DNA from: Pseudomonadota bacterium
GTDB lineage: Bacteria > Pseudomonadota > Gammaproteobacteria > Burkholderiales > Rhodocyclaceae
Length of the DNA: 64,000 bases
Assembly: GCA_018262095.1 (NCBI GenBank)
Contig: JAGTRW010000009.1
Location: 1-64,000 of the forward strand
Direction: 5' to 3'
Positions 211 to 21,793 of the stretch are shown here, piece after piece. Positions within the stretch are counted from its first letter, which is position 1, and each line of letters starts with the position of its first letter. The position numbers and the translations under genes were made by a program. Under the pieces are notes generated by a model, which was not told the DNA's origin, searched no databases, and was given only the letters and a program-made list of their open reading frames with translations.

Positions 211-537
211 CTAGATGGCCGGGGTCGTCGCCGCCACCGCGGCATTCGGCACCCAGTGTTCGGGAACCTCGCTGGCGCGCAGGCCGGGAGCCCAGGCGAT
301 GATTTCGTGGGCGGCGATTCCAGCTTGCTTGAACGGGTCCTCGTCGACCCAGCGTGCCACGTCTGCCAGCGATTCGGCACGCGCCAGGATCACGCCGCCG
401 GTGCGCGGCTCACGGCGCCCGGAGAGCAGGAAATGCCCGGCCGCGTAATGTCGGGAAAGATACTCGCGATGCGCCGCCAGATGCACTTCCACCTCGGCAA
501 GTGGGCGCAGGTAGTCAAGCAGGATCAAGTACAACAT
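211..537 (-). CDS. YciI-family (YCII domain) protein
   Basis: A 108-residue protein of the ferredoxin-like YCII family. It opens with MLYLILLDYLRP, and has a histidine-containing helix (AAHREYLSRHYAAGHFLLSG) and the DEDPF-type motif DEDPFKQAGIA typical of the family. Family members are small cytoplasmic dimers; a few are dehalogenases or domains of larger enzymes, but most have no known reaction. I chose ATG 537 rather than an upstream in-frame start because the conserved YLILLDY strand begins there and GGAG lies about nine bases before it. It precedes the glutathione S-transferase and follows the truncated aldolase by 149 bp, so it may belong to a separate small operon. Confidence 0.8.
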   Translation of the reverse strand: MLYLILLDYLRPLAEVEVHLAAHREYLSRHYAAGHFLLSGRREPRTGGVILARAESLADVARWVDEDPFKQAGIAAHEIIAWAPGLRASEVPEHWVPNAAVAATTPAI

Positions 538-686: not shown

Positions 687-1103
687 TCAGCTCTGCTGCC
701 CGTAGTGGGCAAATTTTTCGAGCACGGTCGCCATTTCTCGCGCATCGAGCAGTACCGGTTCGCCGAGCTGGCAGGCGCGCCAGTATTGCTCGCAGAGCGC
801 CTCGAGTTCAACGGCCAGGTCGAGCGCCTGATCGAGGTTGCGGCCAAAGACCAGCATACCGTGGTTGGCCAGCAGACAGGCGTTGCGCTGAGCCATCGCC
901 GCCAGCGCGGCGTCGGACAGCGCTTGCGTGCCGAAGGTAGCGTAGCTCGCGCAGCGCAGCGTATCGCCGCCGAAGCGGGCGATCATGTAGTGGAAAGCCG
1001 GGATGTCGCGGCGCAGGCAGGCGAGGCTGGTAGCGAACGGCGAGTGCGCATGAACGATGGCGCCGGCCTCGCGGCGCGCGACGTAGACGTCGCGGTGAAT
1101 CAT
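687..1103 (-). CDS. N-terminally truncated class II (zinc) aldolase, FucA/AraD family
   Basis: A 138-residue reading frame that matches only the C-terminal two thirds of class II sugar-phosphate aldolases (usually about 210-220 residues). The zinc ligands are kept: H18 and H20 in VHAHSP, and H81 in ANHGMLVFG. The first 70-80 residues of the fold are missing; these normally carry the phosphate-binding loops and the catalytic glutamate. Homology begins at the initiator (IHRDVYVARREAGAIVH), so no better start was found. Its ATG overlaps the stop of the RuBisCO-like gene (ATGA), which gives translational coupling. It is either a decayed gene created by a deletion at the junction or a reduced zinc protein. 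A complete paralogue lies at 9451-10062. Confidence 0.75.
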   Translation of the reverse strand: MIHRDVYVARREAGAIVHAHSPFATSLACLRRDIPAFHYMIARFGGDTLRCASYATFGTQALSDAALAAMAQRNACLLANHGMLVFGRNLDQALDLAVELEALCEQYWRACQLGEPVLLDAREMATVLEKFAHYGQQS

Positions 1104-2410
1104 TGTGTATTGTGCCTGATCGACATGGCCAGTTCCTGGTGCTCGCGCGCGTAGTCCGCCAGCGATACGCCGGTTTTGATCGCGTCCCAGCCCTGATGCA
1201 GGCTGATCGCGCCAGCGCGCGGTCCCCCCGGGTGACCGAAAACGGCGCGGCCGGGAACGATGGCGAAATCGGTCGATCCGATATCCTGATGCAGTGGTGC
1301 CAGCGAGCCCGCCCATTGCGAGCCGCCCGGAACCGGCAATGCCGCCTTGACCGGGCATCCGGCGTCCGCCGGGCAAAGCGTGTCGCGGCAGGCCTTGACG
1401 TCGTCGAGAACGGCGCTGCGATAGGTCTTCATGCGTGCGCCCATGCCGGCGAAGATGATCGCGTCGAAACCGGCGAGCCGCTGCAGCTTGGTGATCACGC
1501 GCGAATGGACGCCGTAGTACGGCGATTTCGAGAAAGGTGCGACGAAATCGAAGTGGGCGACCAGCGGCACTTCGGTGTGCTTGCGCACCATCCGCGCCGC
1601 GGAGAGGCCGGTCGCCATGGCGTTGATCATCAGCATATTGGCGCCGTTGCGAACACCGATATCGTGCAGCTCGATCAGTCGATCGACTTCGTCGGTGATG
1701 TTGGCGAGGTAGCAGCACTTCTTGCCGGTCTTCTGCTCGGCGTCGCGCCGCGCTTCGCCGAGCAGCCGCGTGCGTTTTTCGAACGGCGACCAGGCACTGT
1801 CGAAGATCAGTTCGTCGTCCTTGGCGACGTCGAGTCCGCCCAGCCAGCTCTCGTAGGCGATATCGCGGAAGGGCTCGGGAGCCAGGCCGATATTGGGTTT
1901 GATGACGCCGAAGAAAAGCGGACGGTGGTGGACGCCGGTCCATTCGCGCAGTCCGGCGACGCCGAATTTGGGTCCTTCGAACTGTTCGAGGTAGCCGGCC
2001 GGGAAAATGATGTCGTGCAGCTTGATGGCGTGAATTCCCGGGCTGAAAAACGCGCCTTCGCCACACGCGGCGGTGATCAGGTTGGGGATCGACGCGCCGA
2101 TGTTACGGATCGGGTAGGCGATCTTGACGCGGCAGGCCCAGAGCTTGGTCCACGCCTCGATCTGGAACGGGATGCACGGCTGCGCCGGGTTGCGCTCGAC
2201 GATCAGATCGATGACCTTGGCCGCATGCCGCGGTCGCATGTCTTCGTCGACGCCGACGCGCTTCCACTGCGCCGTTGATTGCTCTTGGCAGAGGTGGGCC
2301 GCGGCCTCGGCGGGCTCGACGGTTGATTCGAAGAAATAGTCGAGGACGACGTAGTCGCTCATGTCGAGCGTTCCGGGTTCGGCAAAGAAGGCTTTTTGGT
2401 CGCTATTCAC
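1100..2410 (-). CDS. RuBisCO-like protein (form IV large-subunit fold), substrate unknown
   Basis: A 436-residue RuBisCO large-chain homologue. The active-site region reads GVIKPNIGL (K171, equivalent to Lys175 of plant RuBisCO) and GGLDVAKDDE (K197, the carbamylated lysine, with D199 and E200 as magnesium ligands). The second phosphate/lysine position is Asn173, and the loop-6 GKLEG motif is replaced by GARMK, so CO2 fixation on RuBP is not expected. Known relatives catalyse enolisation, isomerisation or decarboxylation/transcarboxylation, for example in methionine salvage and apionate catabolism. Start GTG 2410 has AAAGGA seven bases upstream; an internal ATG at 2362 lacks one. It lies 97 bp after a sugar permease gene and overlaps a truncated aldolase by 4 bp, which suggests a sugar or sugar-acid phosphate substrate. 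Confidence 0.9.
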   Translation of the reverse strand: MNSDQKAFFAEPGTLDMSDYVVLDYFFESTVEPAEAAAHLCQEQSTAQWKRVGVDEDMRPRHAAKVIDLIVERNPAQPCIPFQIEAWTKLWACRVKIAYPIRNIGASIPNLITAACGEGAFFSPGIHAIKLHDIIFPAGYLEQFEGPKFGVAGLREWTGVHHRPLFFGVIKPNIGLAPEPFRDIAYESWLGGLDVAKDDELIFDSAWSPFEKRTRLLGEARRDAEQKTGKKCCYLANITDEVDRLIELHDIGVRNGANMLMINAMATGLSAARMVRKHTEVPLVAHFDFVAPFSKSPYYGVHSRVITKLQRLAGFDAIIFAGMGARMKTYRSAVLDDVKACRDTLCPADAGCPVKAALPVPGGSQWAGSLAPLHQDIGSTDFAIVPGRAVFGHPGGPRAGAISLHQGWDAIKTGVSLADYAREHQELAMSIRHNTQ

Positions 2411-2507
2411 TGTGTTTTCCTTTCGCGATGGTCGAGTCGGTGCTTCCCGGGCGATGTCGGTCGCCAGGATGGAAGCGTCGAAGGGGGGGCGGCTTCGTGC
2501 CGCCGGC

Positions 2508-3505
2508 TTACTGGCTGGCGGTCTGCCCGGGCGCGCGGTCTGGTCGGCGAAGTCTCTTGATGAAGCCCGGAAGGCTGACGCCCTGGTTCATGATCAGCGC
2601 GACCAGGATGACGATGCCGGTGGCGATCGGGTGGTACGACGAGGGCATGTCGAGCAGGTTGAGTCCGTTGTTGATGAAGCCGACCATCACGGCGCCGATC
2701 AGCGCGCCGGCAACCGACCCGTTGCCACCCATCAGGCTGGTTCCGCCGATGACGATGGCGGTGATTACGTCGAACTCGTAGCCGGTGGCGTTCATCGCGT
2801 AGGCCTGTTGGGTGAGCGAGGCCATGACGATTCCGGCGATCGACGCGGTCACCGCCGAGATGATGTAGGCGATGATCCGAGTGCGGTCGGGATTGACGCC
2901 CGACAGCTTGGCCGCAACCTCGTTGGCGCCGACCGCGATGCACTGGCGGCCGAACACCGTGTGCTTGAGCAGGAGGTGACTAAAAACAACCAGCAGCGCC
3001 ATGAGGTAAATGGGGATCGGGATGCCCAGATACTTGTCGATGCCGATCGCCAGGAACGCTTTTGGCTGCATGATGGTGATCTGGTCGCCGTTGGAGACCA
3101 GCATGGCGATGCCGAAGAGGTAGGTCTTGGCGGCCATGGTGACGATGAACGCCGGTACGTTGAACTTGGTCGTGACGATGCCGTTGACCCAGCCGATCAG
3201 CACGCCGATGCCCAGCGTGATGGCGATGGCGAGCAGCCAGTTGAGGTCACAGACGTTCATCAGCAGATTGGCGATGATTCCGGCCAGCGCGGCGATAGTC
3301 GCCACCGACAGATCGATGCCACCGGTGATCGGCGCGTAGATGGCGCCGGTGCACATGATGCCGATCAGGCAGACCGACCACAGCACGTTGGTCAGATTGT
3401 CGATCGTCAGGAAGCGGTCCGACGCGACCGACAGCAAGGCCATCAGCAGCAGCAGGATCCAGAACAGGCGAAGATCGAGAAGCAGTTGCCGCCAATTGAA
3501 CGCTT

Positions 3506-3509
<4 letters not shown>
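2508..3509 (-). CDS. Ribose-type sugar ABC transporter permease (RbsC family), second of two
   Basis: A 333-residue inner-membrane protein of the BPD_transp_2 family with about ten hydrophobic segments. Family motifs include ITGGIDLSVATIAALAG near residue 65 and the cytoplasmic loop with VVIGGTSLMGG that contacts the ATPase. It imports a monosaccharide or derivative with the ATPase encoded just upstream. Its ATG overlaps that gene's stop by 4 bp. A short GGCGGC/GCCGCC hairpin lies just after the stop, before the RuBisCO-like gene. Because the operon has two non-identical permeases, the channel is probably a heterodimer. Confidence 0.9.
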
Positions 3510-5043
<1,534 letters not shown>

Positions 5044-5047
<4 letters not shown>

Positions 5048-6048
5048 ACGCCCTCCCTGGTCGGCATCTGTTTTTGGCGCGCCAGTTTGGCGACGCGCTG
5101 CTCGGCAAATCCCTTGTACCAGACGTCCAAAACGACGGTGACGACGATGATCCCGCCGATGACGATCGGCTGGATGTACGGCGATAACCCGAGTTTAAGG
5201 ATGCCGTTCTTGATCAGTGCCAGGAACAGCGTGCCGATCACCGTTCCCCAGATGTCGCCGATGCCGCCGGTAAACGGCGTGCCGCCGATGACGACCGAGG
5301 CGATGACGTCCATCTCCGAGCCGATGCCGAATTCGGGCATCGCGGTCATCATCCGTGCGCACAGGAAAATCGACGCCAGCGCTGCGCAAAACCCCGAGAA
5401 CATATAAACGCCGATCAGCGTGCGATCGGTGTCAATTCCGGTCAACCGCGCCGCGGTCGGGTTGGCGCCGGTGGCGTAGACGTTGCTGCCCGCCCGGGTG
5501 CGCTTGATGAAGAACTGCGTGGCCAGCGCCAGTACGAAAAAGACGATGACGACGATATAGACGGGGCCGACCGTTTCACCGAACGAGAGAAACAGCTCGT
5601 CCTGGATAAAGACGTTCTTGACGAAGCCCTGGCTGTCCTTGACTGCCGCGATCAGCGCGAGTCCGGTCAGGATGCCACGAGTCGCCAGGGTGACGATGAA
5701 TTCGGGCAGCTTGAAGTAGGTGATGAAGAAGCCGTTGAACCAGCCGATCAGGCAGCCCATCGCCAGCGCGATGGGGATGAAGATGTAGGCCGGCAGGCTG
5801 GTGTAGGAAATGAAATTGACGCAGATCATCGAGGTGATCGCGATCACCGCACCGATCGACATGTCAATTCCGGCGGTGATCAGGACCAGGGTGAAGCCGA
5901 TGGCCACGATCCCGGTCAGGGACGCTTCCTGAAGCATGGTCATCAGGTTGTCCAGCGTCAGAAAGCTTGGGTTGGCAACTGAAAGGGCGGCGCCGATGGA
6001 TATCAGCAGCCCGATCAGGATGAGTCGTCGAATAGCGCTGACCGACAC
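5044..6048 (-). CDS. Ribose-type sugar ABC transporter permease (RbsC family), first of two
   Basis: A 334-residue membrane protein of the same family as the product of 2508-3509 but clearly distinct in sequence. It carries ITAGIDMSIGAVIAITSM and VVIGGTPFTGG motifs and about ten membrane spans. Start ATG 6048 has AGGTGTCA about six bases upstream. It is separated from the binding-protein gene by 185 bp holding a strong stem-loop. It probably pairs with the second permease around a shared ATPase dimer. Confidence 0.9.
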
Positions 6049-6190
6049 GATGACACCTCCAAATTATTGTTTATGGGTAAAGCGGGTTCGCTGTCCCGGC
6101 AAGTCAAGGGCTGATTACGGGCGGCAACTTCCCCCAATGCGGCGTATCAGGAACGCTGCAATGTGGGTCAGCAATTGAATTGACGGGACC

Positions 6191-6220
6191 GGGTGACGGC
6201 GCCGGTCGGCGCCGTCACCC
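6191..6220 (-). other. Perfect 13-bp stem-loop between binding-protein and permease genes
   Basis: GGGTGACGGCGCC (6191-6203) pairs with GGCGCCGTCACCC (6208-6220) across a 4-base loop, 13 bases after the binding-protein stop. No T-run follows on the minus strand, so it is not a typical intrinsic terminator. In ABC operons such structures often protect the upstream binding-protein mRNA from 3' decay so that it is made in excess; that role is inferred. Confidence 0.7.
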
Positions 6221-6233
6221 GTCGCGGAACGCC

Positions 6234-7175
6234 TTACCAGCGATCTTCGGCCTTGATTTGGGCGACCGTGTCCTTGGTCGCAGCGAACGGCGGAACGACG
6301 ATGATCTCGGTCTTGGCGCCCTTTTTCTTGACTCCGGTCAGCAGCTCCATGGCGTACTTGGCCGCTGTTCCCCCCTGGTTGAAGGCATTGGTGTAGGCGG
6401 TGCCGGTGATCTTGCCCTGCTCGATCAGCGTCAGCGTGCTCTTCTGTCCGTTGAAACCCCAGATCTTGATCTGCCCGAGACGGCCGGCCGATTCGGCGGC
6501 GATCGTGGCGCCTTCGGCCATGTTGTCGTTGACCGCGAAGACGGCGTCGAGGTCCTTGTTGACTTGAAGGAAGCTGTTCATCACTTCGATCGCCTTGTCC
6601 TTGACCCACAGGGCGTTTTGAGCGCCAACGATCTTGATATTGGGATAGCTTTTGGCCAGAGCGGCGCGGAATCCCTTCTCACGATCGATGCCGGCCTGGG
6701 CACCGGGAGGCGACTGGATAATCGCGACGTTGCCCTTGCCGCCCAGCGATTCGCCGATTTTCTCGCCGATCAGATAACCCGAGCCGGAATCGTCCATCGT
6801 GACATTGGCCGCATGGGGCAGCAGCGTGTCGGTATTGAGCGTAATCACCGGAATGCCTTTGGCTTCGGCCTTTTTGACGCTGGCGGTGAGCGCCGCGGCG
6901 TCGGCCGGCTGCAGAATGATCGCGTTGTATCCCTGGTTGATGAGGTCGTCCATCAAGGTCACCTGGGTTTCGGCCTTCATGTTCGCGTCGTAGGCCTGGA
7001 ACGTCACATTGCTTTCCTTGAATACCTTTTCGGCACCGGAGCGCCAGGCCTGGGTCAGCGCCTGTCCGATGGACGTCGGTATGTAGCCGATCTTGTAGGC
7101 GGTCTGGGCCTGCGCTGCGCCGGTCGCCATGACCGACAGCGCGACGGAAAACAACATCGATTTTGCTCTATTCAT
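6234..7175 (-). CDS. Periplasmic sugar-binding protein of ribose-type ABC transporter (RbsB family)
   Basis: A 313-residue type I periplasmic binding protein. Residues 1-23 form a signal peptide with a cleavage site after GAAQA. The mature chain starts with YKIGYIPTSIGQALTQAWRSGAE and has the family's ILQPADAAAL and VFAVNDNMAEGA strands. It captures a sugar or related solute and delivers it to the two permeases. It opens a transport block whose remaining genes overlap one another. Upstream lies 198 bp of AT-rich spacer after the UPF0261 gene, with a weak hairpin at 7243-7259. Ligand identity cannot be read from the sequence; linkage to the RuBisCO-like gene points to the substrate of that pathway. 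Confidence 0.92.
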   Translation of the reverse strand: MNRAKSMLFSVALSVMATGAAQAQTAYKIGYIPTSIGQALTQAWRSGAEKVFKESNVTFQAYDANMKAETQVTLMDDLINQGYNAIILQPADAAALTASVKKAEAKGIPVITLNTDTLLPHAANVTMDDSGSGYLIGEKIGESLGGKGNVAIIQSPPGAQAGIDREKGFRAALAKSYPNIKIVGAQNALWVKDKAIEVMNSFLQVNKDLDAVFAVNDNMAEGATIAAESAGRLGQIKIWGFNGQKSTLTLIEQGKITGTAYTNAFNQGGTAAKYAMELLTGVKKKGAKTEIIVVPPFAATKDTVAQIKAEDRW

Positions 7176-7373
7176 GATTGACTCCGAAAAATACAGGATT
7201 CACGTCAATTCGTTCCGGTCCTGTTGGTCCCTGAAAATAATTGTGCTTGAAAAAAGCACCACTGCACCCCTGTTTTACCAATTGCGAGTATAAAATTCCT
7301 GAAAACCTTATTTTTCCTGAGTCTTGATGGCCTTCTCTTTCTATGAAAAATTAATAGAATGACGATGAAATTC

Positions 7374-8597
7374 CTATGCCAGATACCTCAATAACTCCGT
7401 CGCCGCCAGTTTGCCTAATTCGGGTTGGCTGATATTAAGATCGGCCTCGATCCATTTTATTTTCGGATCGATCCTGCTTTTTAAGCTGGTGATGAATGCC
7501 TGATCGACTTCCGGATCATGCAATGCTTTTCCCGGCGCCGATGCTTCGCAAAATCCGCGCAGCGGGATCAACACCGTGGCCGGACCGGTGCATTGGTTGA
7601 GCCGTTCGGCGATGACCTCGGCTATTTTTATGATTTCCGCGCGGAGCACTTTGAGATGAATGAGGCTTGAATTGTGCAGAACCTGCTTCCGGGTCTGCCA
7701 GTCGCTAGGAAAGCTATCAGTCCCAAAATCGGTACAGCAACTGATCATGTCGACCGCCCCCGGGACGATCACCTGCGGAATCCCAGCCTTTGCGGCAGCG
7801 AGCAAACGCCCGCTGGCCCCCGAACAGTAGCCACCGAGCACTTCCGAAGTGATTTCATGCAGCGTCATGTCGAGCGTCGCGCGGATCACCCCCTGGGCGA
7901 TGAAATCTTCCATTGCCGATCCGCCGACGCCTGTGGCGTGAAATGAAACCGTTTCAAATCCCGAATTCTGCATGGCTTGCGCGGCGGCGGTGACACTGCC
8001 GCTGGTCACCCCGAGCATCGTCGCGCCGACCACGGTATTTTCCGGCTTGATAATCGGGCCCAAGCCGTGCGCGGTCATTCCGGCGATGGCCGCTATTGCT
8101 GTGGAGATCACGCTTTTCGTAATCATGTTGATGCCCGAGATATCGGCAACCGAATGCATGATCGCGATGTCCTTGGTTCCGATAAAGGGGCCAAACAAAC
8201 GCTGACCACTGGCCATCGTCGAGAGAATCAGTTTTGGAATGCCGACCGGGAGCATTTTCATAGCGCTGGCGGCCATCAGGGTGTTTTGAATTCCCCCCAT
8301 CGAGAAGACGGCGTCAAATTCCTTGTTTTCGTACAGATCGACGATTTTTTGAGCGATGGCTTTGCTCATCAACTCGATTCTTTTCCTCTTTTCAATGTGG
8401 GCGATCTGATCCCAAGTCAGTCCGCACGAGGCAAGCACGTCCTGGCTCGTCACGTCTGGATCAATTTCCGGGTTTCGCCTGACGCCGACATCGATGAGCA
8501 GTGTATTGAGACCCCATTGCGCTATCAGCTCCTTCGCAAACGCAACTTCAACGCCTTTTGTATCCAGGGAAGCGATAATCGCAATGGTTTTCCTCAT
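7374..8597 (-). CDS. UPF0261 / Tm-1-like ATP-binding domain protein
   Basis: A 407-residue protein of the UPF0261 family, which is homologous to the N-terminal part of the tomato Tm-1 resistance protein. Visible marks are the N-terminal strand KTIAIIASLDTKGVE, GGIQNTLMAASAMK, the glycine-rich FHATGVGGSAMEDF and PLRGFCEASAPGKALHDPE. The related part of Tm-1 binds ATP; no bacterial reaction is established to my knowledge. The C-terminal TIM-barrel partner found in some relatives is absent. It starts 13 bp after the stop of the lactonase-like gene and is clearly co-transcribed. Base composition is lower in G+C than in the transporter genes. A kinase- or isomerase-like role on the imported substrate is speculation. 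Confidence 0.85.
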   Translation of the reverse strand: MRKTIAIIASLDTKGVEVAFAKELIAQWGLNTLLIDVGVRRNPEIDPDVTSQDVLASCGLTWDQIAHIEKRKRIELMSKAIAQKIVDLYENKEFDAVFSMGGIQNTLMAASAMKMLPVGIPKLILSTMASGQRLFGPFIGTKDIAIMHSVADISGINMITKSVISTAIAAIAGMTAHGLGPIIKPENTVVGATMLGVTSGSVTAAAQAMQNSGFETVSFHATGVGGSAMEDFIAQGVIRATLDMTLHEITSEVLGGYCSGASGRLLAAAKAGIPQVIVPGAVDMISCCTDFGTDSFPSDWQTRKQVLHNSSLIHLKVLRAEIIKIAEVIAERLNQCTGPATVLIPLRGFCEASAPGKALHDPEVDQAFITSLKSRIDPKIKWIEADLNISQPELGKLAATELLRYLA

Positions 8598-8610
8598 TAT
8601 GTCGACCGTC

Positions 8611-9414
8611 CTAGATCTTTTTGCCTAATACGGTTCTTTTCTTGAACAGTTCGGCCATTTGCGGTTCGTGGGTCAGCAGGATAAACGAATTGTCCTTGGC
8701 GCGCCGCTTGATGTTTTCGATGCTGCGCCACGATTCGGTAATGTTTTCGAATCTGGCTGGAGGGGTGACGGTATAGAATATTTCCGGGATCTCTTTTAGA
8801 TTGTCGTAGACGAAGAGCGCGTCGCCACAGCAGTGGTATTCACCGACTTCGGTATTGACGACGACGACTTGGTGGCCGATCGAGTGACCTGGAGTCGGGT
8901 AGACGCTGATGCCATCAATAATCGTCTGCTCGCCGTCCAGAAATTCGAAATCAACCCCTTTGAATTGAGGTTCCAAACCAAGCAAGGGGAATTCGTATGA
9001 TTTGTAATAGAGTGGGATGGGGTTCATCGCAAAATCGTATTCCTTTTTCTGGACGTAGAATTTCGCGTTGGTGAATTTTCCCATGTTATAGACATGGTCC
9101 CAGTGCAGATGTGTGAACACCACGATATCGATTTCTTCGGGCTTTATTCCAAGCTTTTCAAGTTGCTCGTGGATGGCATAGCCTTCAGGCTGATACGAGC
9201 CCGGATGATGGTATTTATGGGCGATTTCGGTGCACGACATTCCGGTGTCTATCATTATTTTTTTGCCGTTCCCTTCGACCAGAAAAACGGTGACCGGAAG
9301 CTCGGCGTAACCTTCGGCGTCATAATATTTGTGCGTGCTGTGGTGATAGACATAAGTGCCCTTGTGGGTGTGCGTATAGCCAGTGACAATGGGGCGGATG
9401 GTGTAAACGTTCAT
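8611..9414 (-). CDS. Metallo-beta-lactamase-fold hydrolase, AHL-lactonase-like
   Basis: A 267-residue dinuclear metal hydrolase. The HxHxDH motif is HLHWDH (residues 102-107), followed by H177 in TPGHSIGHQ, D198 in CCGDALF and H249 in LLTHEPQ, so all metal ligands are present. The arrangement matches N-acyl-homoserine lactonases such as AttM/BlcC, whose wider family opens lactone rings. No signal peptide is seen. Given its neighbours (sugar importer, aldolase, RuBisCO-like protein), hydrolysis of a sugar-acid lactone is a more likely job than quorum quenching; this is inference from context. It lies between the aldolase (36 bp gap) and the UPF0261 gene (13 bp gap). Confidence 0.87.
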   Translation of the reverse strand: MNVYTIRPIVTGYTHTHKGTYVYHHSTHKYYDAEGYAELPVTVFLVEGNGKKIMIDTGMSCTEIAHKYHHPGSYQPEGYAIHEQLEKLGIKPEEIDIVVFTHLHWDHVYNMGKFTNAKFYVQKKEYDFAMNPIPLYYKSYEFPLLGLEPQFKGVDFEFLDGEQTIIDGISVYPTPGHSIGHQVVVVNTEVGEYHCCGDALFVYDNLKEIPEIFYTVTPPARFENITESWRSIENIKRRAKDNSFILLTHEPQMAELFKKRTVLGKKI

Positions 9415-9450
9415 CGATGTTCCTTTTTTCGACAGTTAAAAACGTAATCG

Positions 9451-10062
9451 TTATTTGATGATGCCAATATTCCGTCCGATGGCATCGAGCCAGCAGATTT
9501 TTGCAGTCTCCTCGACCAGTTCGGCAAGCTGCTCGGCAAGAACAGCCGAGTTTCCGGTCGCGACTATTCCATGACCCTTGAGAACAAAAGCCTGTATCCC
9601 CGGATTGTTTCGCAGCAAATCGAGGATCATCGGCAGGTGATCTTTGGTCACTTCCGGCGTTTCCACATCGATGACCGGAACGGGGCAGGTCATTTTCAAT
9701 TGAGCGTGTTTGGTGATCAGCGGGATATCTCTGCCGGTGAATGACCAGGCGATCGAGTACGGCGAGTGGGTATGTACAACAGCCCCAAGATGGGCAAACT
9801 CGCGATACAGGGCACTGTGCAGAACGATCTCGCGTGTTGGCTTGAGGTTACCTTCGATGATCTTTCCGTCGAGGTCGGTTACCGCAATGGTGTCGGTGGC
9901 CGATTCGCCAAAACTGACGCCGCTTGCTTTCACCGCCATGAGTTCCTGATTGCCGACGCGGACGCTGATATTCCCACCGTTTCCTGTTTGCATTCCGGAC
10001 GTATGGGCACGCTTTGCGGCGGCGATAAAGTCATTTTTGGCGTTTTCAATCTCACCTTTCAC
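9451..10062 (-). CDS. Class II (zinc) aldolase/adducin-family aldolase, full length
   Basis: A 203-residue class II aldolase. GNGGNISVR and KASGVSFG form the N-terminal phosphate-binding region. E78 in PTREIV is the expected catalytic acid/base. H97, H99 (VHTHSP) and H164 (KGHGIVA) bind zinc. Related enzymes cleave L-fuculose-1-P, L-rhamnulose-1-P or similar phosphorylated ketoses, or act as epimerases or decarboxylases. Start GTG 10062 is preceded by AAGGAG at ideal spacing. It is the first gene of the catabolic operon, downstream of two candidate operators for the adjacent GntR-family regulator. Substrate is unknown; it could replace the damaged paralogue at the far end of the operon. Confidence 0.9.
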   Translation of the reverse strand: MKGEIENAKNDFIAAAKRAHTSGMQTGNGGNISVRVGNQELMAVKASGVSFGESATDTIAVTDLDGKIIEGNLKPTREIVLHSALYREFAHLGAVVHTHSPYSIAWSFTGRDIPLITKHAQLKMTCPVPVIDVETPEVTKDHLPMILDLLRNNPGIQAFVLKGHGIVATGNSAVLAEQLAELVEETAKICWLDAIGRNIGIIK

Positions 10063-10109
10063 TATCTGAACTCCTTGAAAATTTCATACAAACACCTCTT
10101 GATATGAGG

Positions 10110-10120
10110 AGGTCTAACAA
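10110..10120 (-). promoter_or_regulatory. Candidate FadR-type operator, proximal to aldolase operon
   Basis: TTGTTAGACCT on the minus strand matches ten of the eleven positions of the perfect palindromic site found before the regulator gene, apart from the last half-site base and one spacer variation. It lies 48 bases upstream of the aldolase start. FadR-subfamily regulators bind TNGTNNNACNA-like sites. Confidence 0.55.
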
Positions 10121-10176
10121 CATGAAAAAAAGCGATTTTTCCCCGATTACTTGAATATCTAGATCATGAAGTTTGG

Positions 10177-10187
10177 AGGTCTAACAA
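10177..10187 (-). promoter_or_regulatory. Candidate FadR-type operator, distal to aldolase operon
   Basis: A second copy of exactly the same 11-mer (TTGTTAGACCT, minus strand), 67 bp upstream of the first and with the same orientation. The identical repeat in non-coding DNA between the regulator stop and the aldolase start supports a real binding site. Confidence 0.55.
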
Positions 10188-10236
10188 CTTGCCCGAATCT
10201 ATTTTTATTATCGAAAATTAATCCGGCGTCAATTCC

Positions 10237-10959
10237 CTATCCTGCTTGTTGGTGTTTTTTTTCCAGCGCAATGTCTATCATGTCCTCGACTCGATTCATG
10301 TGCGTCTCCATCATCCGCGCCGCTTTATCCGGATTTCGCTCGGCGATGGCTTCGCAAATATTCCTGTGATAACTGATCACCTCGTCGCGCTGAGGAGATT
10401 CTTGCAGACTCAAGAACTGGTGAATATGCAAGGTTTCATGGATCGAATTGATGAACTGAACATAAATGCCGTTGTGCGATGCTTCGGCGATTGCCACATG
10501 GAGCTTCAAATCGGCCGCGTAGAATGAATTGTCTTTTCCAAGTCGGTGTTTGGTGACCTCTTCTTTGGTGACTTTTTCATAGTGCAAAATCTTTTCTATA
10601 TCGAGATCTGTGGCGTTGATCGCAGCCATTCTGGCTGACTCGACTTCAAGGAGCTTTCGTAATTGGAGCATTTCCTTGATCGACTTTTCCTGCAGAAACA
10701 TGAATGCGTTAAATTCACTCCCCAGAATATCGGGGCTCGCAATGTTTACAAATGTGCCAATTCCGTGTTTGGTTACGAGATACCCCGCCTGACGTAGCGA
10801 ACGAAGCGCTTCGCGAATCGGGACACGACTGACCCCAAACATTTCGGTCAGCTGCAATTCGGTCGGCAGTCGCTCGCCAATTTTGAATTCGCCACTTATG
10901 ATCGATCGCTTGATCTTTTCCATGACTTGATCACAAGCGTTTGTTTTTTGAATCAACAT
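10237..10959 (-). CDS. GntR-family transcriptional regulator, FadR/FCD subfamily
   Basis: A 240-residue repressor or activator. Residues 10-75 form the winged helix (IISGEFKIGERLPTELQL then FGVSRVPIREALRSL). The C-terminal FCD helical domain has the metal-ligand pattern Asp/His in AADLKLHVAIAEASHN and a histidine in METHMNRVEDM. FCD domains bind small carboxylic acids, so a sugar acid from the adjacent pathway is a natural effector. The ATG at 10959 lies 34 bp downstream of a perfect TTGTCTAACAA palindrome, which suggests autoregulation. Two near copies lie before the aldolase gene. It heads the AT-rich minus-strand gene set. Confidence 0.9.
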   Translation of the reverse strand: MLIQKTNACDQVMEKIKRSIISGEFKIGERLPTELQLTEMFGVSRVPIREALRSLRQAGYLVTKHGIGTFVNIASPDILGSEFNAFMFLQEKSIKEMLQLRKLLEVESARMAAINATDLDIEKILHYEKVTKEEVTKHRLGKDNSFYAADLKLHVAIAEASHNGIYVQFINSIHETLHIHQFLSLQESPQRDEVISYHRNICEAIAERNPDKAARMMETHMNRVEDMIDIALEKKHQQAG

Positions 10960-11576
10960 AAGGTCACTTTCTCAATGCGGCTCGTTGTGATGTTGTCTAA
11001 CAACAGAGTCTGTCACGGATTCTATTTCACATCTCAGTACGACGCAAGTGTTTCTGGAAGTTTGTGAAAGAGAAGTAGCCACGAAGCGGCACGGAAGGAA
11101 AGCTGGCAGGCCGAAATGGGTCGTGAGCACGAATTTGCAATTCGAGGAAGTTGCCATCCAGGTTGATCGCGGGCAGAGCGGCAGCTGTCCGGCGCATTGC
11201 CGCCCGAGTCTTGCCAGTGTGTCAAGGTCGGCTCGCGCAGGCTGTCTGGCAGGTTTTAAAGCGAAGCAGTCGTCCGTATGGCCGGTTCATGGAACCGGCG
11301 ACGGTCCACTGATGGCCGAGTCCGGGCAACGCGGGCATCAATTTGCTCGCCGGGTAGCGGACATTCAGCGGGGTCAGGGGGCTCCCAAGCTATTCAAATT
11401 GGGAGACCACCTGGACCGGCCGCTTGTGGCCGATTGTACGCATAGAGGATTGCGCCGGAAAGCAGCCTTTCAAGCAGAGGGTGAATTTGCGCCCGATAAC
11501 TACTCTACGACTTGAAGTCGTGAACGGCAGCAATCCGACATCCCGCGGTCGTTAAACCGTCGCCCGGCACATTGCC
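10960..11576. other. 617-bp spacer without a convincing gene
   Basis: Apart from the GntR operator near its right-hand start, the stretch holds no reading frame that I can assign. A plus-strand frame of 155 codons (11048-11515) has erratic composition and no domain. A short inverted repeat (ACGACT/AGTCGT) lies near 11506-11520, past the end of the HpaI-type gene. The stretch separates the AT-rich RuBisCO-like-protein locus from the G+C-rich HpaI/xylose genes and may be a recombination border or a decayed gene. Confidence 0.5.
10992..11004. promoter_or_regulatory. Perfect FadR-type palindrome upstream of the GntR gene
   Basis: GTTGTCTAACAAC is a 5+3+5 palindrome matching TNGTNNNACNA exactly at its core (10993-11003). 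It sits 33 bp upstream of the regulator start, where a repressor would block its own promoter. Confidence 0.65.
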
Positions 11577-12359
11577 TTAGCGGGCGAGCTCCTCGTTGGT
11601 TCGTTGCCAGGCGTCGTCGATGGCCTTGGTGAATAACATGCTGTCGACGGCGATGGCGACAAAGTTCGCTCCGGATGAAATATGCTGTTTGGCGGTGGCC
11701 GGTTCGGTGCCCATGATTCCCGCCGCCTTGCCGAGCGCGCGAATGCGCCGGATCGCCGTGTCGATCGCCGCACTGACTTGCGGGTGTCCGGGATTGCCCA
11801 GATGGCCCATCGACGCGGATAGATCGGCCGGCCCGATAAACACCCCATCGACGCCTTCGACCTGGGTGATTTCGTCGAGGTTGGCGAGGCCCCGTTCGGA
11901 TTCGATTTGCACCAGCAGGCAAAGCTCGCGTTCGACGACGTCGGTGTAATCGGCAATCCGTCCCCAGCGTGACGCCCGCGCGGCAATCGGTGCGACGCCG
12001 CGAATGCCGCGCGTCGGGTAGCGCATGGCCAAGACCAGATCGCGCGCTTCCTGGGCGGTGTCGACCATCGGCACGAGCAGTGTCTGCGCGCCGCAATCGA
12101 GAACCTGCTTGATCAGCGCCGGGTCCTTGTTGACCGTGCGCACGATAGCGTGGCTGCTGTAGGCCGCCACCGCCTGCAATTGCGCAAGGATCGTCGGCAC
12201 GTCGTTGGGTCCGTGTTCGCCGTCGATCAGCAGCCAGTCATAGCCTGAGGTCGCCGCGATTTCCGCGGTGTAAGGATTGGCGCAGGTCAGCCACAGACCG
12301 AGTTGAGTACGGCCGGCCTTGATCGCTGCCTTGAATGCGTTGTGCGGAATGCTGTTCAT
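11577..12359 (-). CDS. HpaI/GarL-family class II pyruvate aldolase
   Basis: A 260-residue TIM-barrel aldolase of the HpcH/HpaI family. Key elements are WLLIDGEHGPND (with the catalytic histidine and metal-site region), LLVQIESERGLANLDEI (metal-ligand Glu), GVDGVFIGPADLSASMG (metal-ligand Asp) and the GSRGVAP-like IRGVAPIA. Relatives cleave 2-keto-3-deoxy-glucarate or 4-hydroxy-2-oxo acids to pyruvate plus an aldehyde. ATG 12359 is chosen because MNSIPHNAFK begins the conserved fold. It stands alone between a 617-bp spacer and xylB, on the same strand. It could serve either the sugar-acid locus or a 2-keto-3-deoxy-pentonate branch; the sequence does not decide. Confidence 0.88.
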   Translation of the reverse strand: MNSIPHNAFKAAIKAGRTQLGLWLTCANPYTAEIAATSGYDWLLIDGEHGPNDVPTILAQLQAVAAYSSHAIVRTVNKDPALIKQVLDCGAQTLLVPMVDTAQEARDLVLAMRYPTRGIRGVAPIAARASRWGRIADYTDVVERELCLLVQIESERGLANLDEITQVEGVDGVFIGPADLSASMGHLGNPGHPQVSAAIDTAIRRIRALGKAAGIMGTEPATAKQHISSGANFVAIAVDSMLFTKAIDDAWQRTNEELAR

Positions 12360-12635
12360 GATTGGATTCTTGTTCCCCGTCAATTGTTGTTGAGAAAACT
12401 GCCCCTTGTTTGATCCAAACAGAATACGTAATTTGGGCTGCGGCTGACAGCTTTTTTGATTCTCACGCGCCATGTTCGGCCCGACGCAGCATTCCGGTGT
12501 TGTAGAAAAGACGACTCGGGGCATCGCCCGCAGTCGGCTCGATGCGCCCATCGATGCTGGGCTTGTCGGGCTTAATTCCCTGGCGGTTGATTGCCGCGGC
12601 GAGATCGCTGAGCGCCTGGCAATCAGCGGATTTTT

Positions 12636-14273
12636 TCAGCTGTTGCGAAGCTTTTCAAAAGCAATTTCCAGTTGGTCGAGGTATCCGCCCGGCGCGTGAT
12701 AAGCCTGAACCATCGCCGAATCGGGCTGGACGATACGCTTGCCGGTAAAAAGAGACCGGCGCAGTCTCTCGGCCAGAGCCTCGCGTTCGGCTTCCGGGAC
12801 CAGCGCCACGGCGGCGGCCAGCGCTGCGCCCAGGGCGGCGCCGGCTTGCCCGGCCTGGATCGCCGGGCGGTTCCAGATCGCCGCAATGCGGCTCATGATG
12901 CCCGGGCTGGCGGACGGTCCGCCGCAAACGCTCATGGGGTGCTGGTGCGAATTGACGCGAGCGCCAACGATCTTGCGTCCATAGCGGTAGAGCAGGCCTA
13001 GCGAGCTGTCGACGACGGCGGAATAATCGCTGGCGAAGTCGACCGCTGACTGATCGAGCCGCACCGGTTCAGGACTGGCGGCGATCATCGGAAAGGATTC
13101 TGCGTCGGGATGCCAGAAGCGGATCAGGCTGCCCGCTGCAGTATTGGCGAGAGCGGCATCACACGCCGCGTAGTCCTTGGCGCCCAGACCATGGCGCAAG
13201 CGCAGCTGATCCCAGGCCAGCGCACCGTTGGTCCGACAAGCGAAGTTGAACGGGCGGCCGAGACCGTCGTACATGGCGTTGGCCGTGCCGCTGGCGTCGA
13301 CGCCGCCATCCGGGCTAACGATCATGTACACGAAGCTGGTGCCCAGACTGAGCAGGTCGCCGCTGGCCAGAACCTTGGATTGGGGATTGTCGCCCGAGCC
13401 CGCGATGATCTGGCAAGTGGCGGCCAAGCCGTATTTGATCTGAAAGTACGCGGCTACGGTGCCGCAGACGGCCAAGGGGTGGGCGATCGGCGGCAGCTTG
13501 GCGGCCAGGGCGGCGGCGCCACCCGGGAGGTCGCCTGCGACGGCCTGCATGACGACGTCGTCCCAGGCGCGCGCCTGGTAATTCATCAGCCCGGTGCCGC
13601 AGGCATTGCCGAAATCGATGGGGATGGCGCAGTCTCCCACCAGGATCGCCGGAATGAAGCTGGAGATTTGCTGGATGTGGCGCGTCGCCGCATAGGCCTC
13701 CGGGTAACGGACGGCCAGTTTGCGATGCACGGTGGCGGAAAAGCGCAGCGGGATGTCGCTGCCGGTGCGTTCGATGGTCGCCGCCTTGCCGCCGATGGCG
13801 GAACGGATATGGGCGGCTTCGGCGGCGGTGTTGGCGGTCTTCCAGATCGGCGCGCCACCGTAGGCGAAAGCGTTGGCGAGGTGAGTCAACAGGGAATCGC
13901 CGGCGCTCGCCGCTTGGCGCAGGCGAGCAAAGGCGGCCTGCGCCTGAGCGTTCAGGTAGACGTGGCCATGTTGCTGGCCGGAGGTGTTGATTGCGGCAAT
14001 CGCCGCGGTGTCGATGCCGGCGGCCTGAAGATCGCTGAACAAGGCATCGAGGGCGGCGATGAACAGGCGTGGCGGTTGTTCGGCTTCGCCCGCCTCGCGC
14101 GGCGGGATGATCAGTGTGTCGTGCTCGAAACCGAGTCCGCACAAGCGGGGATCGTCGCGGTAGGGCAGCGAGCCGCTCCAGAGGATTTCACCCGAGGGGC
14201 TGTGCAGCACCACAGCACTCAGGCTTTGCGTGCTGACGTCGATTCCGAGGACGGTTTGGCTTGTCGCTGGCAT
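12636..14273 (-). CDS. xylB: FGGY-family carbohydrate kinase, probable xylulokinase
   Basis: A 545-residue sugar kinase with the FGGY fold. The ATPase phosphate-1 motif is LGIDVSTQSLSAVV, the sugar-binding loop INTSGQQHGH, and the ATP-binding region GSGDNPQSKV and the C-terminal CGGPSASPGIMSRI. Expected reaction: D-xylulose plus ATP to xylulose-5-phosphate in the cytoplasm. The assignment to xylulose rests on linkage to xylA, xylR and a GH43 enzyme; the protein is somewhat longer than E. coli XylB (about 484 residues), so a related ketose is possible. It is the last gene of the xyl-type operon, 116 bp after the ATPase gene. Confidence 0.85.
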   Translation of the reverse strand: MPATSQTVLGIDVSTQSLSAVVLHSPSGEILWSGSLPYRDDPRLCGLGFEHDTLIIPPREAGEAEQPPRLFIAALDALFSDLQAAGIDTAAIAAINTSGQQHGHVYLNAQAQAAFARLRQAASAGDSLLTHLANAFAYGGAPIWKTANTAAEAAHIRSAIGGKAATIERTGSDIPLRFSATVHRKLAVRYPEAYAATRHIQQISSFIPAILVGDCAIPIDFGNACGTGLMNYQARAWDDVVMQAVAGDLPGGAAALAAKLPPIAHPLAVCGTVAAYFQIKYGLAATCQIIAGSGDNPQSKVLASGDLLSLGTSFVYMIVSPDGGVDASGTANAMYDGLGRPFNFACRTNGALAWDQLRLRHGLGAKDYAACDAALANTAAGSLIRFWHPDAESFPMIAASPEPVRLDQSAVDFASDYSAVVDSSLGLLYRYGRKIVGARVNSHQHPMSVCGGPSASPGIMSRIAAIWNRPAIQAGQAGAALGAALAAAVALVPEAEREALAERLRRSLFTGKRIVQPDSAMVQAYHAPGGYLDQLEIAFEKLRNS

Positions 14274-14389
14274 GGTTTTTCGGTTCTGTCGCGTTGATCG
14301 AGTTGGGCTGAATCATTGGCGATTTTTCGATGCGACGGAGGGCCCGGACGCACGCCTTCTCGTTGGATGATCGAGAGCGGCGGGTTCGC

Positions 14390-15388
<999 letters not shown>

Positions 15389-15434
15389 TTGATCCTCGAA
15401 CTGATTCAACGCCGGTTATCGATTCTTGCTGGAT

Positions 15435-17054
15435 TCAGAGCAGATCCTGGTATTCAAAGTAATCAAAATCAGCCGTCATCGCCTGGCCACTGACATCGTG
15501 CGCTGCCATTCCGACAAAGGCGCCGGTGAAGTTGCCGTGATCTCCTTGCCCGACCTCGTCGGACAACAAGGAGGCGTCATTGACCGGGCCGATCCGTGTC
15601 CACGGACCTGAGCCGAGGGCGTAGAAGAAGCGCAGTGCGCAGTCATGAACGTCGACCCGCAAGCGAACCGGTTGATCGGCAGGGACCGCTACCGGATGTT
15701 CGAGCGGGACGGTCAGGTTGCCGACGGGCCAGTCTCCGGCACACGAAAATACCTGCAGACAGGTTCCGGCAACGTCGTCGAAAGTGAGCGCCAGGTAATG
15801 GAAGGCGCAACGGTTGTAATAGGCGATCAGCCCGGCCATCTGCTGGTAGTTTTGCGGATGGGCGTCAACGACGGTTTCTGCCCGGTAGGCGAGTGAGGTC
15901 TGGCGTCGCGCAACCAGCGACTGTTCGAACGAACTGCCGATCGATTCGCGACCGATCAGGCGCAGATGGCCGGCGCGGGCATCGAGCGTGAAAATCCGTT
16001 CCGGGAACGGTGTGCGCAGCCACTGGAAGACGGGCGGCAGCGTTTCTGAATCGAAATCGTGCCGGATCGGATCCTCCGGGAAACGGTGGCACGGAAGGTC
16101 TGGCGCGGGAACCTGCATTTGCGGCTCCTGAGGGATGCCGCACAGGCGCAGCCAGCCATCATCGTCCCATTGCACTTTCTGGATCGCCGTCTCGCGTCCG
16201 CGAGGGCAGCGCTGTAAGCCGGCGATGGGGCGCCCGGCGAGATGCACAAGATAGGTTTCGCCAGCCGGCGTTTCAACGAGGTCGCCGTGACCGGCACGCT
16301 GCAATTCGGCGTCAGGAAAGATACGCGACGTCACGACATGCCACTGCGGGTGCAGTTCATACGGGCCGGTGATGGTTCTTGAGCGAGCCATAGAGACGGC
16401 ATGGCCGTAGCCGGTGCCGCCCTCGGCCGTTATGAGATAGTAGAAATCGCCCCGCTTGTAGAGATGCGGGCCTTCGGTTTTTCCCAGCGGACTGCCTGGG
16501 AAGATATTGTGTGTCTGGCCAACGAGACGTTTGGCAAGCGCATCATATTCCTGGAGCAGGATGCCGCCGAATTTTGTCGGACGTGCGCGGTGATCCCAGA
16601 CGAGATTGACGAGCCACTTTCGTCCATCGTCGTCGTGGAAAAGCGACGCGTCAAAACCGCTCGAATTGAGGTAAACCGGATCGGACCACGGACCTTCGAT
16701 GCGGGGAGCGGTGACCAGGTAATTGTGCACATCCTTGAAGTTTCCTTCCCTGCGTTTGACATCGCTGTAGACGAGCCAGAACAGGCCGTCCGAGAAAGTC
16801 AGGCAGGGCGCCCAGACGCCACAGGAATCGCCGTTTCCGCGCAGGTCAAGCTGCGACGCGCGATTGAGCGGGCGGGTGGCCAACTGCCAATGAATCAGAT
16901 CCCTTGAGTGGTGAATCTGTACGCCGGGGTACCATTCAAAAGTCGAGGTGGCGATGTAGTAGTCGTCGGCAACCCGGACAATCGATGGGTCGGGGTTGAA
17001 GCCCTTGAGAATGGGGTTTTGAATGAACGATCCGGTAGCGGAGGTGTTGCTCAT
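15435..17054 (-). CDS. Glycoside hydrolase family 43, probable beta-xylosidase
   Basis: A 539-residue five-bladed propeller enzyme. FNPDPSIVRVADDYYIATS carries the general-base Asp, SGFDASLFHDDDGRKWLVN the pKa-modulating Asp, and KTEGPHLYKRGDFYYLITAEGG the catalytic Glu. A C-terminal beta-sandwich domain follows after about residue 320, as in XynB-type xylosidases. It has no signal peptide, so it should cut imported xylo-oligosaccharides in the cytoplasm. ATG 17054 follows AAGG at good spacing; another ATG two codons earlier overlaps the permease stop. It matches the ABC importer and xylose-isomerase genes around it. Arabinofuranosidase activity is possible within this family. Confidence 0.9.
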   Translation of the reverse strand: MSNTSATGSFIQNPILKGFNPDPSIVRVADDYYIATSTFEWYPGVQIHHSRDLIHWQLATRPLNRASQLDLRGNGDSCGVWAPCLTFSDGLFWLVYSDVKRREGNFKDVHNYLVTAPRIEGPWSDPVYLNSSGFDASLFHDDDGRKWLVNLVWDHRARPTKFGGILLQEYDALAKRLVGQTHNIFPGSPLGKTEGPHLYKRGDFYYLITAEGGTGYGHAVSMARSRTITGPYELHPQWHVVTSRIFPDAELQRAGHGDLVETPAGETYLVHLAGRPIAGLQRCPRGRETAIQKVQWDDDGWLRLCGIPQEPQMQVPAPDLPCHRFPEDPIRHDFDSETLPPVFQWLRTPFPERIFTLDARAGHLRLIGRESIGSSFEQSLVARRQTSLAYRAETVVDAHPQNYQQMAGLIAYYNRCAFHYLALTFDDVAGTCLQVFSCAGDWPVGNLTVPLEHPVAVPADQPVRLRVDVHDCALRFFYALGSGPWTRIGPVNDASLLSDEVGQGDHGNFTGAFVGMAAHDVSGQAMTADFDYFEYQDLL

Positions 17055-17059
17055 GACCA

Positions 17060-18822: not shown

Positions 18823-18858
18823 CGTTCTGGGCCAATAAGGAAGCGGCGAAACTCCAGA

Positions 18859-18925
18859 GCGCCAGGCGTGCATGGCGCCACTCTTGAGTACGGGTGAAGT
18901 CAGTGGGCAGGCGATGGGCCTGCCC
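18859..18925 (-). other. Two stem-loops after the binding-protein gene
   Basis: GGGCAGGC (18905-18912) pairs with GCCTGCCC (18918-18925), and GCGCCA (18859-18864) pairs with TGGCGC (18873-18878). They lie just after the binding-protein stop and before the permease genes, the same position as the stem-loop at 6191-6220 in the other sugar ABC operon. No T-run follows. A role in raising binding-protein mRNA stability is inferred. Confidence 0.55.
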
Positions 18926-18933
18926 GGGGACGG

Positions 18934-20196: not shown

Positions 20197-20341
20197 ATCA
20201 TTTCCCCTCTTGTTTTCTGTCTGTCGGGAACTGCCGTGTGGCCGATCCCGCTATCGATCATCGCGGCCCTGACCGCTGATGTCACGGAAATTACCCGATA
20301 CTTCGCAATTTACCAGCCATCGTTACGTTATTTTTCTGTAT

Positions 20342-21658: not shown

Positions 21659-21746
21659 CTTTACTACCTCCGTCAAGCGCAGAGCGCGAGGCCTGGTGAG
21701 AGAAACCGAGGAAGGTTCGCATGCCTCGGCGATTAAATCGAGGTCA

Positions 21747-21779
21747 ATAATAGGTTCCGGATGACCTGCTGACTATTAT
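21747..21779. promoter_or_regulatory. Inverted repeat in the xylA-xylR spacer, candidate XylR site
   Basis: ATAATAG (21747-21753) and CTATTAT (21773-21779) form a perfect 7-bp inverted repeat, centre to centre 26 bp, in the 135-bp region between the divergent xylA and xylR genes. AraC-type regulators such as XylR bind paired half-sites here. The match to a known XylR box was not established. Confidence 0.4.
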
Positions 21780-21793
21780 GAAATCCGCCGATC

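What the first reader, a model, noticed from the sequence alone, without database searches (positions are those of the whole stretch)
1100..10962. RuBisCO-like protein in a complete import-and-degrade operon of unknown substrate
One minus-strand locus combines a FadR-type regulator, class II aldolase, lactonase-like metallo-hydrolase, UPF0261/Tm-1-like protein, a ribose-type importer with two different permeases, and a form IV RuBisCO-like protein (catalytic lysines K171/K197 kept, loop-6 motif lost). RLPs in sugar-acid catabolism are known from apionate pathways, but those use a DUF1537 kinase and dehydrogenases that are absent here. A possible route is import, lactone opening, phosphorylation or activation (perhaps by the Tm-1-like ATP-binding protein), RLP-catalysed enolisation or decarboxylation, then aldol cleavage. 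Substrate and order are inference.
Basis: partly seen in the sequence, partly recalled or inferred. Interest (0 to 1): 0.8.

Follow-up and report, generated by a model that had tools for sequence, protein, structure and literature searches.

The report
RuBisCO-like enzyme in sugar-import operon
A bacterium carries an operon that seems to import and break down an unknown sugar-like compound with a RuBisCO relative whose nearest known kin, from photosynthetic bacteria, have no known reaction, so the operon offers a way to find out what that branch of the RuBisCO family does.

Summary
In detail: nine adjacent minus-strand genes (1100-10959) encode a FadR-type regulator, class II aldolase, lactonase-like metallo-hydrolase (MBL), UPF0261 protein, ribose-type importer and a RuBisCO-like protein (RLP). 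The RLP fails the apionate-type (OiaX) and methionine-salvage (MtnW) cut-offs. It is 55-56% identical to the orphan 'Photo' RLPs of Chlorobaculum tepidum and Rhodopseudomonas palustris and forms a separate clade beside them, with 18 of 19 active-site positions shared. I found this clade in four genomes: three of one genus and one Acetobacteraceae metagenome bin. In all four it occurs with MBL, aldolase 1 and UPF0261. In 29 of 29 other Acetobacterales UPF0261 loci examined, a TIM-barrel PF09370 gene follows UPF0261 (one match partial); in the fourth genome the RLP sits in that slot, and no PF09370 match was found in the four genomes. My reading: the RLP replaces that barrel as UPF0261's partner in sugar-acid catabolism, doing metal-dependent enolate chemistry. 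Substrate and reactions are inferred; a 5-deoxysugar salvage rival remains.

The parts
1100..2410 (-). RuBisCO-like protein, 436 aa, clade sister to Photo RLPs
687..1103 (-). 5'-truncated second class II (FucA/Ald2-type) aldolase, last 138 codons; lacks about the first 75 residues including the Glu of the SSEWRFH motif
   Evidence: intact in L002 1923-2582 and L024
2508..3509 (-). importer permease 2 (BPD_transp_2)
3506..5047 (-). importer ATPase (AraG/RbsA-like, two ABC domains)
5044..6048 (-). importer permease 1 (BPD_transp_2); about 33% identical to the permease-2 homologue of G026
6234..7175 (-). periplasmic sugar-binding protein (Peripla_BP_4); best NCBIfam models allose- and ribose-binding, far under cut-off
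7374..8597 (-). UPF0261 / Tm-1-like protein
8611..9414 (-). lactonase-like metallo-hydrolase (MBL fold); HLHWDH motif visible in the translation
9451..10062 (-). class II aldolase 1
10237..10959 (-). FadR/GntR-FCD regulator

Best explanation
The locus is a regulated catabolic operon for a small carbohydrate or its lactone. A ribose-type (CUT2) ABC importer takes it up (family shown, ligand unknown); the metallo-hydrolase opens a lactone or ester (inferred from family); UPF0261, a family named as ATP-binding, activates or phosphorylates the acid (inferred); the RLP, which keeps the metal-binding K-D-E triad and the K175-equivalent base, forms a metal-stabilised enolate of that product and isomerises or decarboxylates it (inferred from active site and RuBisCO-family chemistry); a class II aldolase cleaves the resulting sugar phosphate (inferred). 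The RLP fills the place that a TIM-barrel PEP-hydrolase-like protein (PF09370) fills in the other UPF0261 gene pairs examined. FadR controls the set (inferred from position).
For: MBL + aldolase 1 + UPF0261 + RLP are present in 4 of 4 genomes where this RLP was found: window, P. dicarboxylicus DSM 5885 (at two contig ends, L048 and L002), G026, and Acetobacteraceae bin contig L003. RLP identity window/L003 is 81% while UPF0261, MBL and aldolase 1 are 33, 45 and 42%, so the set persists although the partners differ greatly. In the window FadR to UPF0261 have GC 47-55% and dS 1.6 to saturated against G026, while importer and RLP have GC 60-64% and dS 0.6-0.75: two halves with different histories, same gene content. 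UPF0261 is followed by PF09370-type sequence in 29 of 29 other Acetobacterales loci examined (the best-scoring 29 of 66 other genomes with a match; one hit only 60 residues) and is beside it in 6 of 6 plasmid loci viewed. In L003 the RLP start overlaps the UPF0261 stop by 4 bases. No PF09370 match in 4 of 4 RLP-operon genomes. Active site: 9 of 19 canonical positions kept, K175, K201, D203, E204 equivalents among them; 18 of 19 as in C. tepidum RLP.
Against: No reaction, ligand or transcript was found for these proteins. In the window and G026 UPF0261 and RLP are separated by the four importer genes. Two other same-family genomes (G051, G028) have UPF0261 with no PF09370 match and no RLP of this clade, so loss of PF09370 beside UPF0261 does not need an RLP. 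L003 is a 6.4-kb contig of a metagenome bin, so its host could be wrong. All genomes but G026 are in tens of contigs or more, or of untold completeness, so absence of PF09370 is not proof. MtnA matches in all four genomes, so a 5-deoxysugar salvage role is not excluded. The UPF0261 model was too poor to search (pLDDT 58.7).
Confidence: 0.5

Rival explanations
1. The RLP, with the downstream aldolase 2 and HAD phosphatase-like gene of the relatives, salvages 5-substituted ribose (5-methylthioribose or 5-deoxyribose), isomerising a ribulose-1-phosphate that aldolase 2 cleaves to DHAP and an aldehyde; the upstream genes serve something else.
For: RLP and aldolase 2 are 13 bases apart in G026. Aldolase 2 of G026 and P. 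dicarboxylicus is 68-69% identical to a class II aldolase encoded right after mtnA in G026 and G005, the gene pair of the DHAP shunt (pathway recalled and named in PMC5893883). MtnA matches in 4 of 4 genomes, over the cut-off in 3; in the window's genome as two pieces at contig ends, below it. A ribose-type importer fits.
Against: The Photo RLP of R. [quoted passage not shown] the same passages cite an earlier report of slow partial conversion), and the window RLP shares 18 of 19 active-site positions with it. Aldolase 2 is truncated in the window; in L003 it does not follow the RLP, though only 0.6 kb of contig is left there. MBL, aldolase 1 and UPF0261 are present in all four.
Confidence: 0.2
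2. OiaX-like chemistry: the RLP decarboxylates a phosphorylated 3-oxo sugar acid as in D-apiose catabolism, with UPF0261 standing in for the DUF1537 kinase.
For: An OiaX-related RLP overlaps a four-carbon acid sugar kinase gene in Haloterrigena; OiaX is the best NCBIfam model for the window RLP; RLPs that decarboxylate 3-oxo-isoapionate-4-phosphate are described (PMC6302742, passage seen); lactonase-like enzyme and importer would fit a sugar-acid path.
Against: 218.8 bits against a cut-off of 700, like the two Photo rows tested (217, 228), while six OiaX-related rows score 402-508 (these too miss the cut-off). G403 and G404, kept in the three OiaX-related rows shown, are R and A here.
Confidence: 0.17
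3. The RLP has a stress or other non-catabolic role, as described for C. tepidum RLP, and only rides in the operon.
For: Nearest kin are Photo RLPs; PMC5893883 describes the C. [quoted passage not shown]
Against: In four Photo-type loci viewed (L028, L058, L059, L061) none of the window's other operon genes is nearby (annotation; tblastn for the last three), and the operon association recurs in a distant genome.
Confidence: 0.08

Closest known systems
Form IV 'Photo' RLPs (C. tepidum RLP 1tel/1ykw, R. palustris RLP2 2qyg)
   Same: 55-56% identity, 18 of 19 active-site positions, joint clade 100/99
   Different: separate clade (100/99); G404 to A and changed residues beside loop 6 and H294; catabolic-type operon, while two Photo-type loci sit by yjbQ-like genes, one of them at a photosynthesis cluster
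OiaX-type RLPs of D-apiose/apionate catabolism
   Same: RLP in a sugar-acid import-and-degrade setting
   Different: 28-31% identity to the OiaX-related rows, far below the OiaX cut-off, no DUF1537 kinase among the nine genes
UPF0261 + PF09370 (Tm-1-like) gene pair
   Same: UPF0261 beside a TIM-barrel gene, in L003 in the same slot
   Different: the barrel is an RLP; no PF09370 match in the four genomes
DHAP shunt (mtnA-ald2)
   Same: aldolase 2 of the relatives is a close paralogue of the mtnA-linked aldolase
   Different: no mtnA, sugar kinase or phosphorylase among the operon's genes; RLP, MBL and UPF0261 added

Membership tests
RuBisCO superfamily (RLP, form IV) | RuBisCO large-chain N and catalytic domains | tested here: met
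   PF00016 1.2e-45 and PF02788 6e-06, both over cut-off
RuBisCO superfamily (RLP, form IV) | catalytic set of true RuBisCO incomplete | tested here: met
   10 of 19 canonical positions changed; K334 is R, K177 is N (list of positions recalled)
Photo RLP clade | falls inside the Photo clade in a tree | tested here: not met
   four operon RLPs form their own clade (100/99) beside six Photo-type rows (92/97); four of the six rows are called Photo by similarity only
Photo RLP clade | Photo active-site pattern | tested here: met
   18 of 19 positions as in C. tepidum and R. palustris RLP2
OiaX (3-oxo-isoapionate-4-phosphate decarboxylase) | NCBIfam NF042437 cut-off 700 bits | tested here: not met
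   218.8 bits
MtnW (methionine salvage enolase) | NCBIfam TIGR03332 and NF007095 cut-offs | tested here: not met
   153.3 of 513.6 and 187.6 of 409 bits
DeepYkr RLP | tree placement with DeepYkr | not tested
   no DeepYkr row in the tree; indirect only: best non-Photo solved protein 193 bits against 511-528 for Photo ones
UPF0261 | both UPF0261 domains over cut-off | tested here: met
   176 and 219.6 bits, cut-off 27
UPF0261-PF09370 gene pair | PF09370 gene present | tested here: not met
   0 of 4 genomes with a match
AHL lactonase (AiiA/AttM) | NCBIfam equivalog cut-off | tested here: not met
   90.4 of 375 and 85 of 390 bits; only the fold family is supported
named class II aldolase equivalogs (aldolase 1) | NCBIfam cut-off | tested here: not met
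   best 111.6 of 251 bits

The most novel reading that the evidence does not exclude
A new RLP clade, sister to the orphan Photo RLPs, has displaced the PF09370 TIM barrel as the partner of UPF0261 in a sugar-acid pathway: UPF0261 makes an ATP-activated sugar acid and either barrel performs the enolate step. Solving it would name a reaction for UPF0261, for PF09370 and, by kinship of active site, for the Photo RLPs.
Probability: 0.3. Interest if true: 0.85.

Novelty: new variant of a known kind. Interest (0 to 1): 0.62.

Why it matters
Photo RLPs have solved structures but no known reaction (recalled; PMC5893883 passages found no part for RLP2 in MTA metabolism). A sister clade inside an import operon turns that into a ligand-and-growth question. 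UPF0261, the family of the tomato Tm-1 protein, also appears to lack an assigned reaction; my searches listed none, in a library without most subscription papers.

Tried and rejected
Rejected: OiaX and MtnW membership. The genome has one PF00016 match, this gene, which argues against a second RLP or a RuBisCO of its own, as far as a draft genome can. Not settled: whether the 5'-truncation of aldolase 2 is a real deletion or an assembly join; which aldolase the fragment descends from (75-78% to the RLP-linked one, 78-79% to the mtnA-linked one). In one search the extracted mtnA-linked rows were in a wrong frame; its alignment and those percentages were not used, only its tblastn lines and the window-versus-RLP-linked values.

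Led nowhere: UPF0261 structure (two-row alignment, pLDDT 58.7), not searched; ligand by homology of the binding protein (solved hits carry mostly general sugar-binding names); literature on RLP with UPF0261, IV-Photo, UPF0261 with operon, Tm-1-like gene clusters, apionate, lactonase, apiose (listings; passages seen of PMC5893883, PMC5028733 and PMC6302742 only).

Distribution of this RLP clade: 3 of 99 relatives; 1 of 398 phylum sample at 1e-70 (own genome); 1 of 369 class sample (own; besides it three Photo-type and four more distant RLPs at 1e-50); 1 of 299 Acetobacterales at 1e-70 (L003's genome); 2 loci in a pattern scan of genome contigs; no plasmid hit of 60% or more (366 records). UPF0261 occurs in 7 of 99 relatives: the three RLP genomes, two with PF09370 (G004, G080) and two without (G051, G028). 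MBL of L003 type: 1 of 299 Acetobacterales at 1e-35; best plasmid hits about 33% or less in the 40 rows listed. I did not search for this MBL in the genus or family without the RLP. One search looked at 30 of the 67 UPF0261 matches, those with a locus. RLP tree: 29 rows; left out L014, L019, L022, L023 and and matches without a locus. UPF0261 tree (15 rows): the four RLP-operon proteins lie across a branch (93/95) from nine PF09370-linked ones, but L003's has a very long branch (2.32) and does not join the other three closely.
Full report
Setting. The window is the first 64 kb of contig C37 (118,297 bases) of a 4.8-Mb genome in 82 contigs. The genome has a single RuBisCO-family match, the gene in question.

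Observation. Nine minus-strand genes run from FadR (10959) to the RLP (1100) with gaps of 13 to 198 bases or 4-base overlaps. The same order FadR, aldolase 1, MBL, UPF0261, binding protein, permease 1, ATPase, permease 2, RLP is present in G026 (L024), there followed by aldolase 2 and a HAD-family gene. P. dicarboxylicus has these genes at two contig ends (L048: FadR to part of permease 1; L002: part of permease 2 to HAD-like; the ATPase falls in the gap). Between window and G026 ten genes show pN/pS 0.19-0.41.

After the RLP the window holds the last 138 codons of a second class II aldolase, in line with about residue 76 onward of the intact 219-aa gene. It lacks the Glu of SSEWRFH, by recall the catalytic acid of fuculose-1-phosphate aldolase. 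No HAD gene follows; the next gene is a YCII-domain one. So this copy of the operon is shorter than that of its kin.

Which RLP. Solved relatives: 2qyg 528 bits, 1tel 513, 1ykw 511, next 3nwr 193. In a tree of 29 rows the window, G005, G026 and L003 RLPs form one clade (100/99) beside six Photo-type rows (92/97), the ten together at 100/99. Two of the six are named Photo in print; the other four are called so by similarity. Rows related to OiaX and the RuBisCO rows lie apart. No YkrW or DeepYkr row was in the tree; that exclusion rests on scores. Of 19 canonical active-site positions (spinach numbering and list recalled; MAFFT alignment) the window keeps 9 of the residues of a form I-like row, K175, K201, D203, E204 and H294 equivalents among them, and shares 18 with C. 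tepidum RLP. Phosphate-site residues R295, K334, S379 and G403 are changed as in Photo RLPs, so a bisphosphate is unlikely as substrate (inference). Neighbouring motifs differ between the clades: HFDF or HFDM against HFPF or HFPM, FAGMGARMKT against mostly MPGFGxRMMT, PGGSQWAG against mostly PGGSDSA.

Context of Photo RLPs. In Thiodictyon the RLP lies at the end of a photosynthesis cluster after idi and yjbQ. In G886 it overlaps by 4 bases a gene that looks YjbQ-like, and in G1093 and G886 a flavocytochrome-like TAT-signal gene is near (families judged by eye). The window's other operon proteins gave no tblastn hit in L058, L059 or L061. R. palustris RLP2 had no detectable activity on 5-(methylthio)ribulose-1-phosphate (PMC5893883, passages).

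A core of four. L003, a 6.4-kb contig of an Acetobacteraceae bin, has a regulator with a sugar-binding domain, MBL, aldolase 1, UPF0261 and RLP in a row. The RLP is 81% identical to the window's but UPF0261 33%, MBL 45% and aldolase 1 42%. The window's own operon also looks mosaic: FadR to UPF0261 have GC 47-55% and dS 1.6 to saturation against G026; importer and RLP have GC 60-64% and dS 0.6-0.75, the aldolase remnant dS 0.71 (in G026 the same genes have GC 59-67%). The GC difference itself inflates dS, so this is a sign of different history, not a dating. Keeping the same four functions across such differences argues that they work together.

The UPF0261 slot. UPF0261 and a TIM-barrel (TBST) family co-occur and co-evolve (PMC5028733, passages; that TBST is PF09370 / 'phosphoenolpyruvate hydrolase family' is my equation). 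In six plasmid loci viewed UPF0261 is beside such a gene. In Acetobacterales 67 of 299 genomes have a UPF0261 match; of the 30 loci returned, 29 have PF09370-type sequence downstream on the same strand (28 nearly full length, one 60 residues only) and the thirtieth, L003's genome, has the RLP there, with a GTGA overlap. No PF09370 match was found in the four RLP-operon genomes. Against a strict rule: G051 and G028 have UPF0261 but neither PF09370 nor this RLP; they form a deep separate branch in the UPF0261 tree. In window and G026 the RLP is not adjacent to UPF0261.

Mechanism. Shown: gene content, conservation, RLP clade, retained metal and base residues, partner slot in L003. Inferred: lactone opening by MBL, ATP-dependent activation by UPF0261, enolate chemistry by RLP, aldol cleavage. 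Both PF09370 and RLP are TIM barrels, and by recall PF09370 belongs with PEP-mutase-like enzymes that also pass through enolates, which makes a swap chemically sensible. The substrate is unknown; in the window the operon lies next to a pentose cluster (several genes judged by eye), but the relatives have other neighbours, so this is only a hint.

Main rival. Aldolase 2 of the relatives is 68-69% identical to the aldolase that follows mtnA in the same genomes, and MtnA matches in all four genomes, in two pieces at contig ends in the window's genome. That keeps a 5-deoxy- or 5-methylthio-sugar salvage role open. It is weakened by the truncated aldolase 2 in the window, its absence directly after the RLP in L003, and the negative assays on RLP2.

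Verdict. A real and coherent operon. RLP in sugar catabolism is a known theme (PMC6302742, passage), but for this RLP clade, its UPF0261 pairing and its closeness to the orphan Photo RLPs my searches listed no description; the library lacks most subscription papers, and the apiose paper itself was not held.

Noticed in passing
window 214-537 (-): YCII-domain gene next to the aldolase remnant; a 50-52% identical gene lies beside FadR, at the other end of the operon, in G005 and G026.
   Followed up: partly
window 11577-23050: Adjacent pentose-use cluster: HpcH/HpaI aldolase and FGGY kinase, and by eye an ABC sugar importer, GH43-like enzyme, xylose isomerase and XylR-like regulator.
   Followed up: no
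L024 3127-5410; L048 6411-8139: In G026 and G005 a zinc alcohol dehydrogenase and an Asp/Glu racemase-family gene lie upstream of the operon, and in G026 an RpiB-type isomerase too.
   Followed up: partly
L054 (G797) and L055 (G796): Two RLPs 31-35% identical to the window's, nearest to Photo RLPs among solved ones, possibly further branches.
   Followed up: partly
L061 4952-6181: Photo-type RLP of G886: the genome search reports one in-frame TAA within the match, while another genome of the same genus (G1093) shows none.
   Followed up: no
L045 (G028) 8807-11539: UPF0261 gene without PF09370 in its genome, close to a gene that looks UbiX-like by eye, perhaps another partner type.
   Followed up: no
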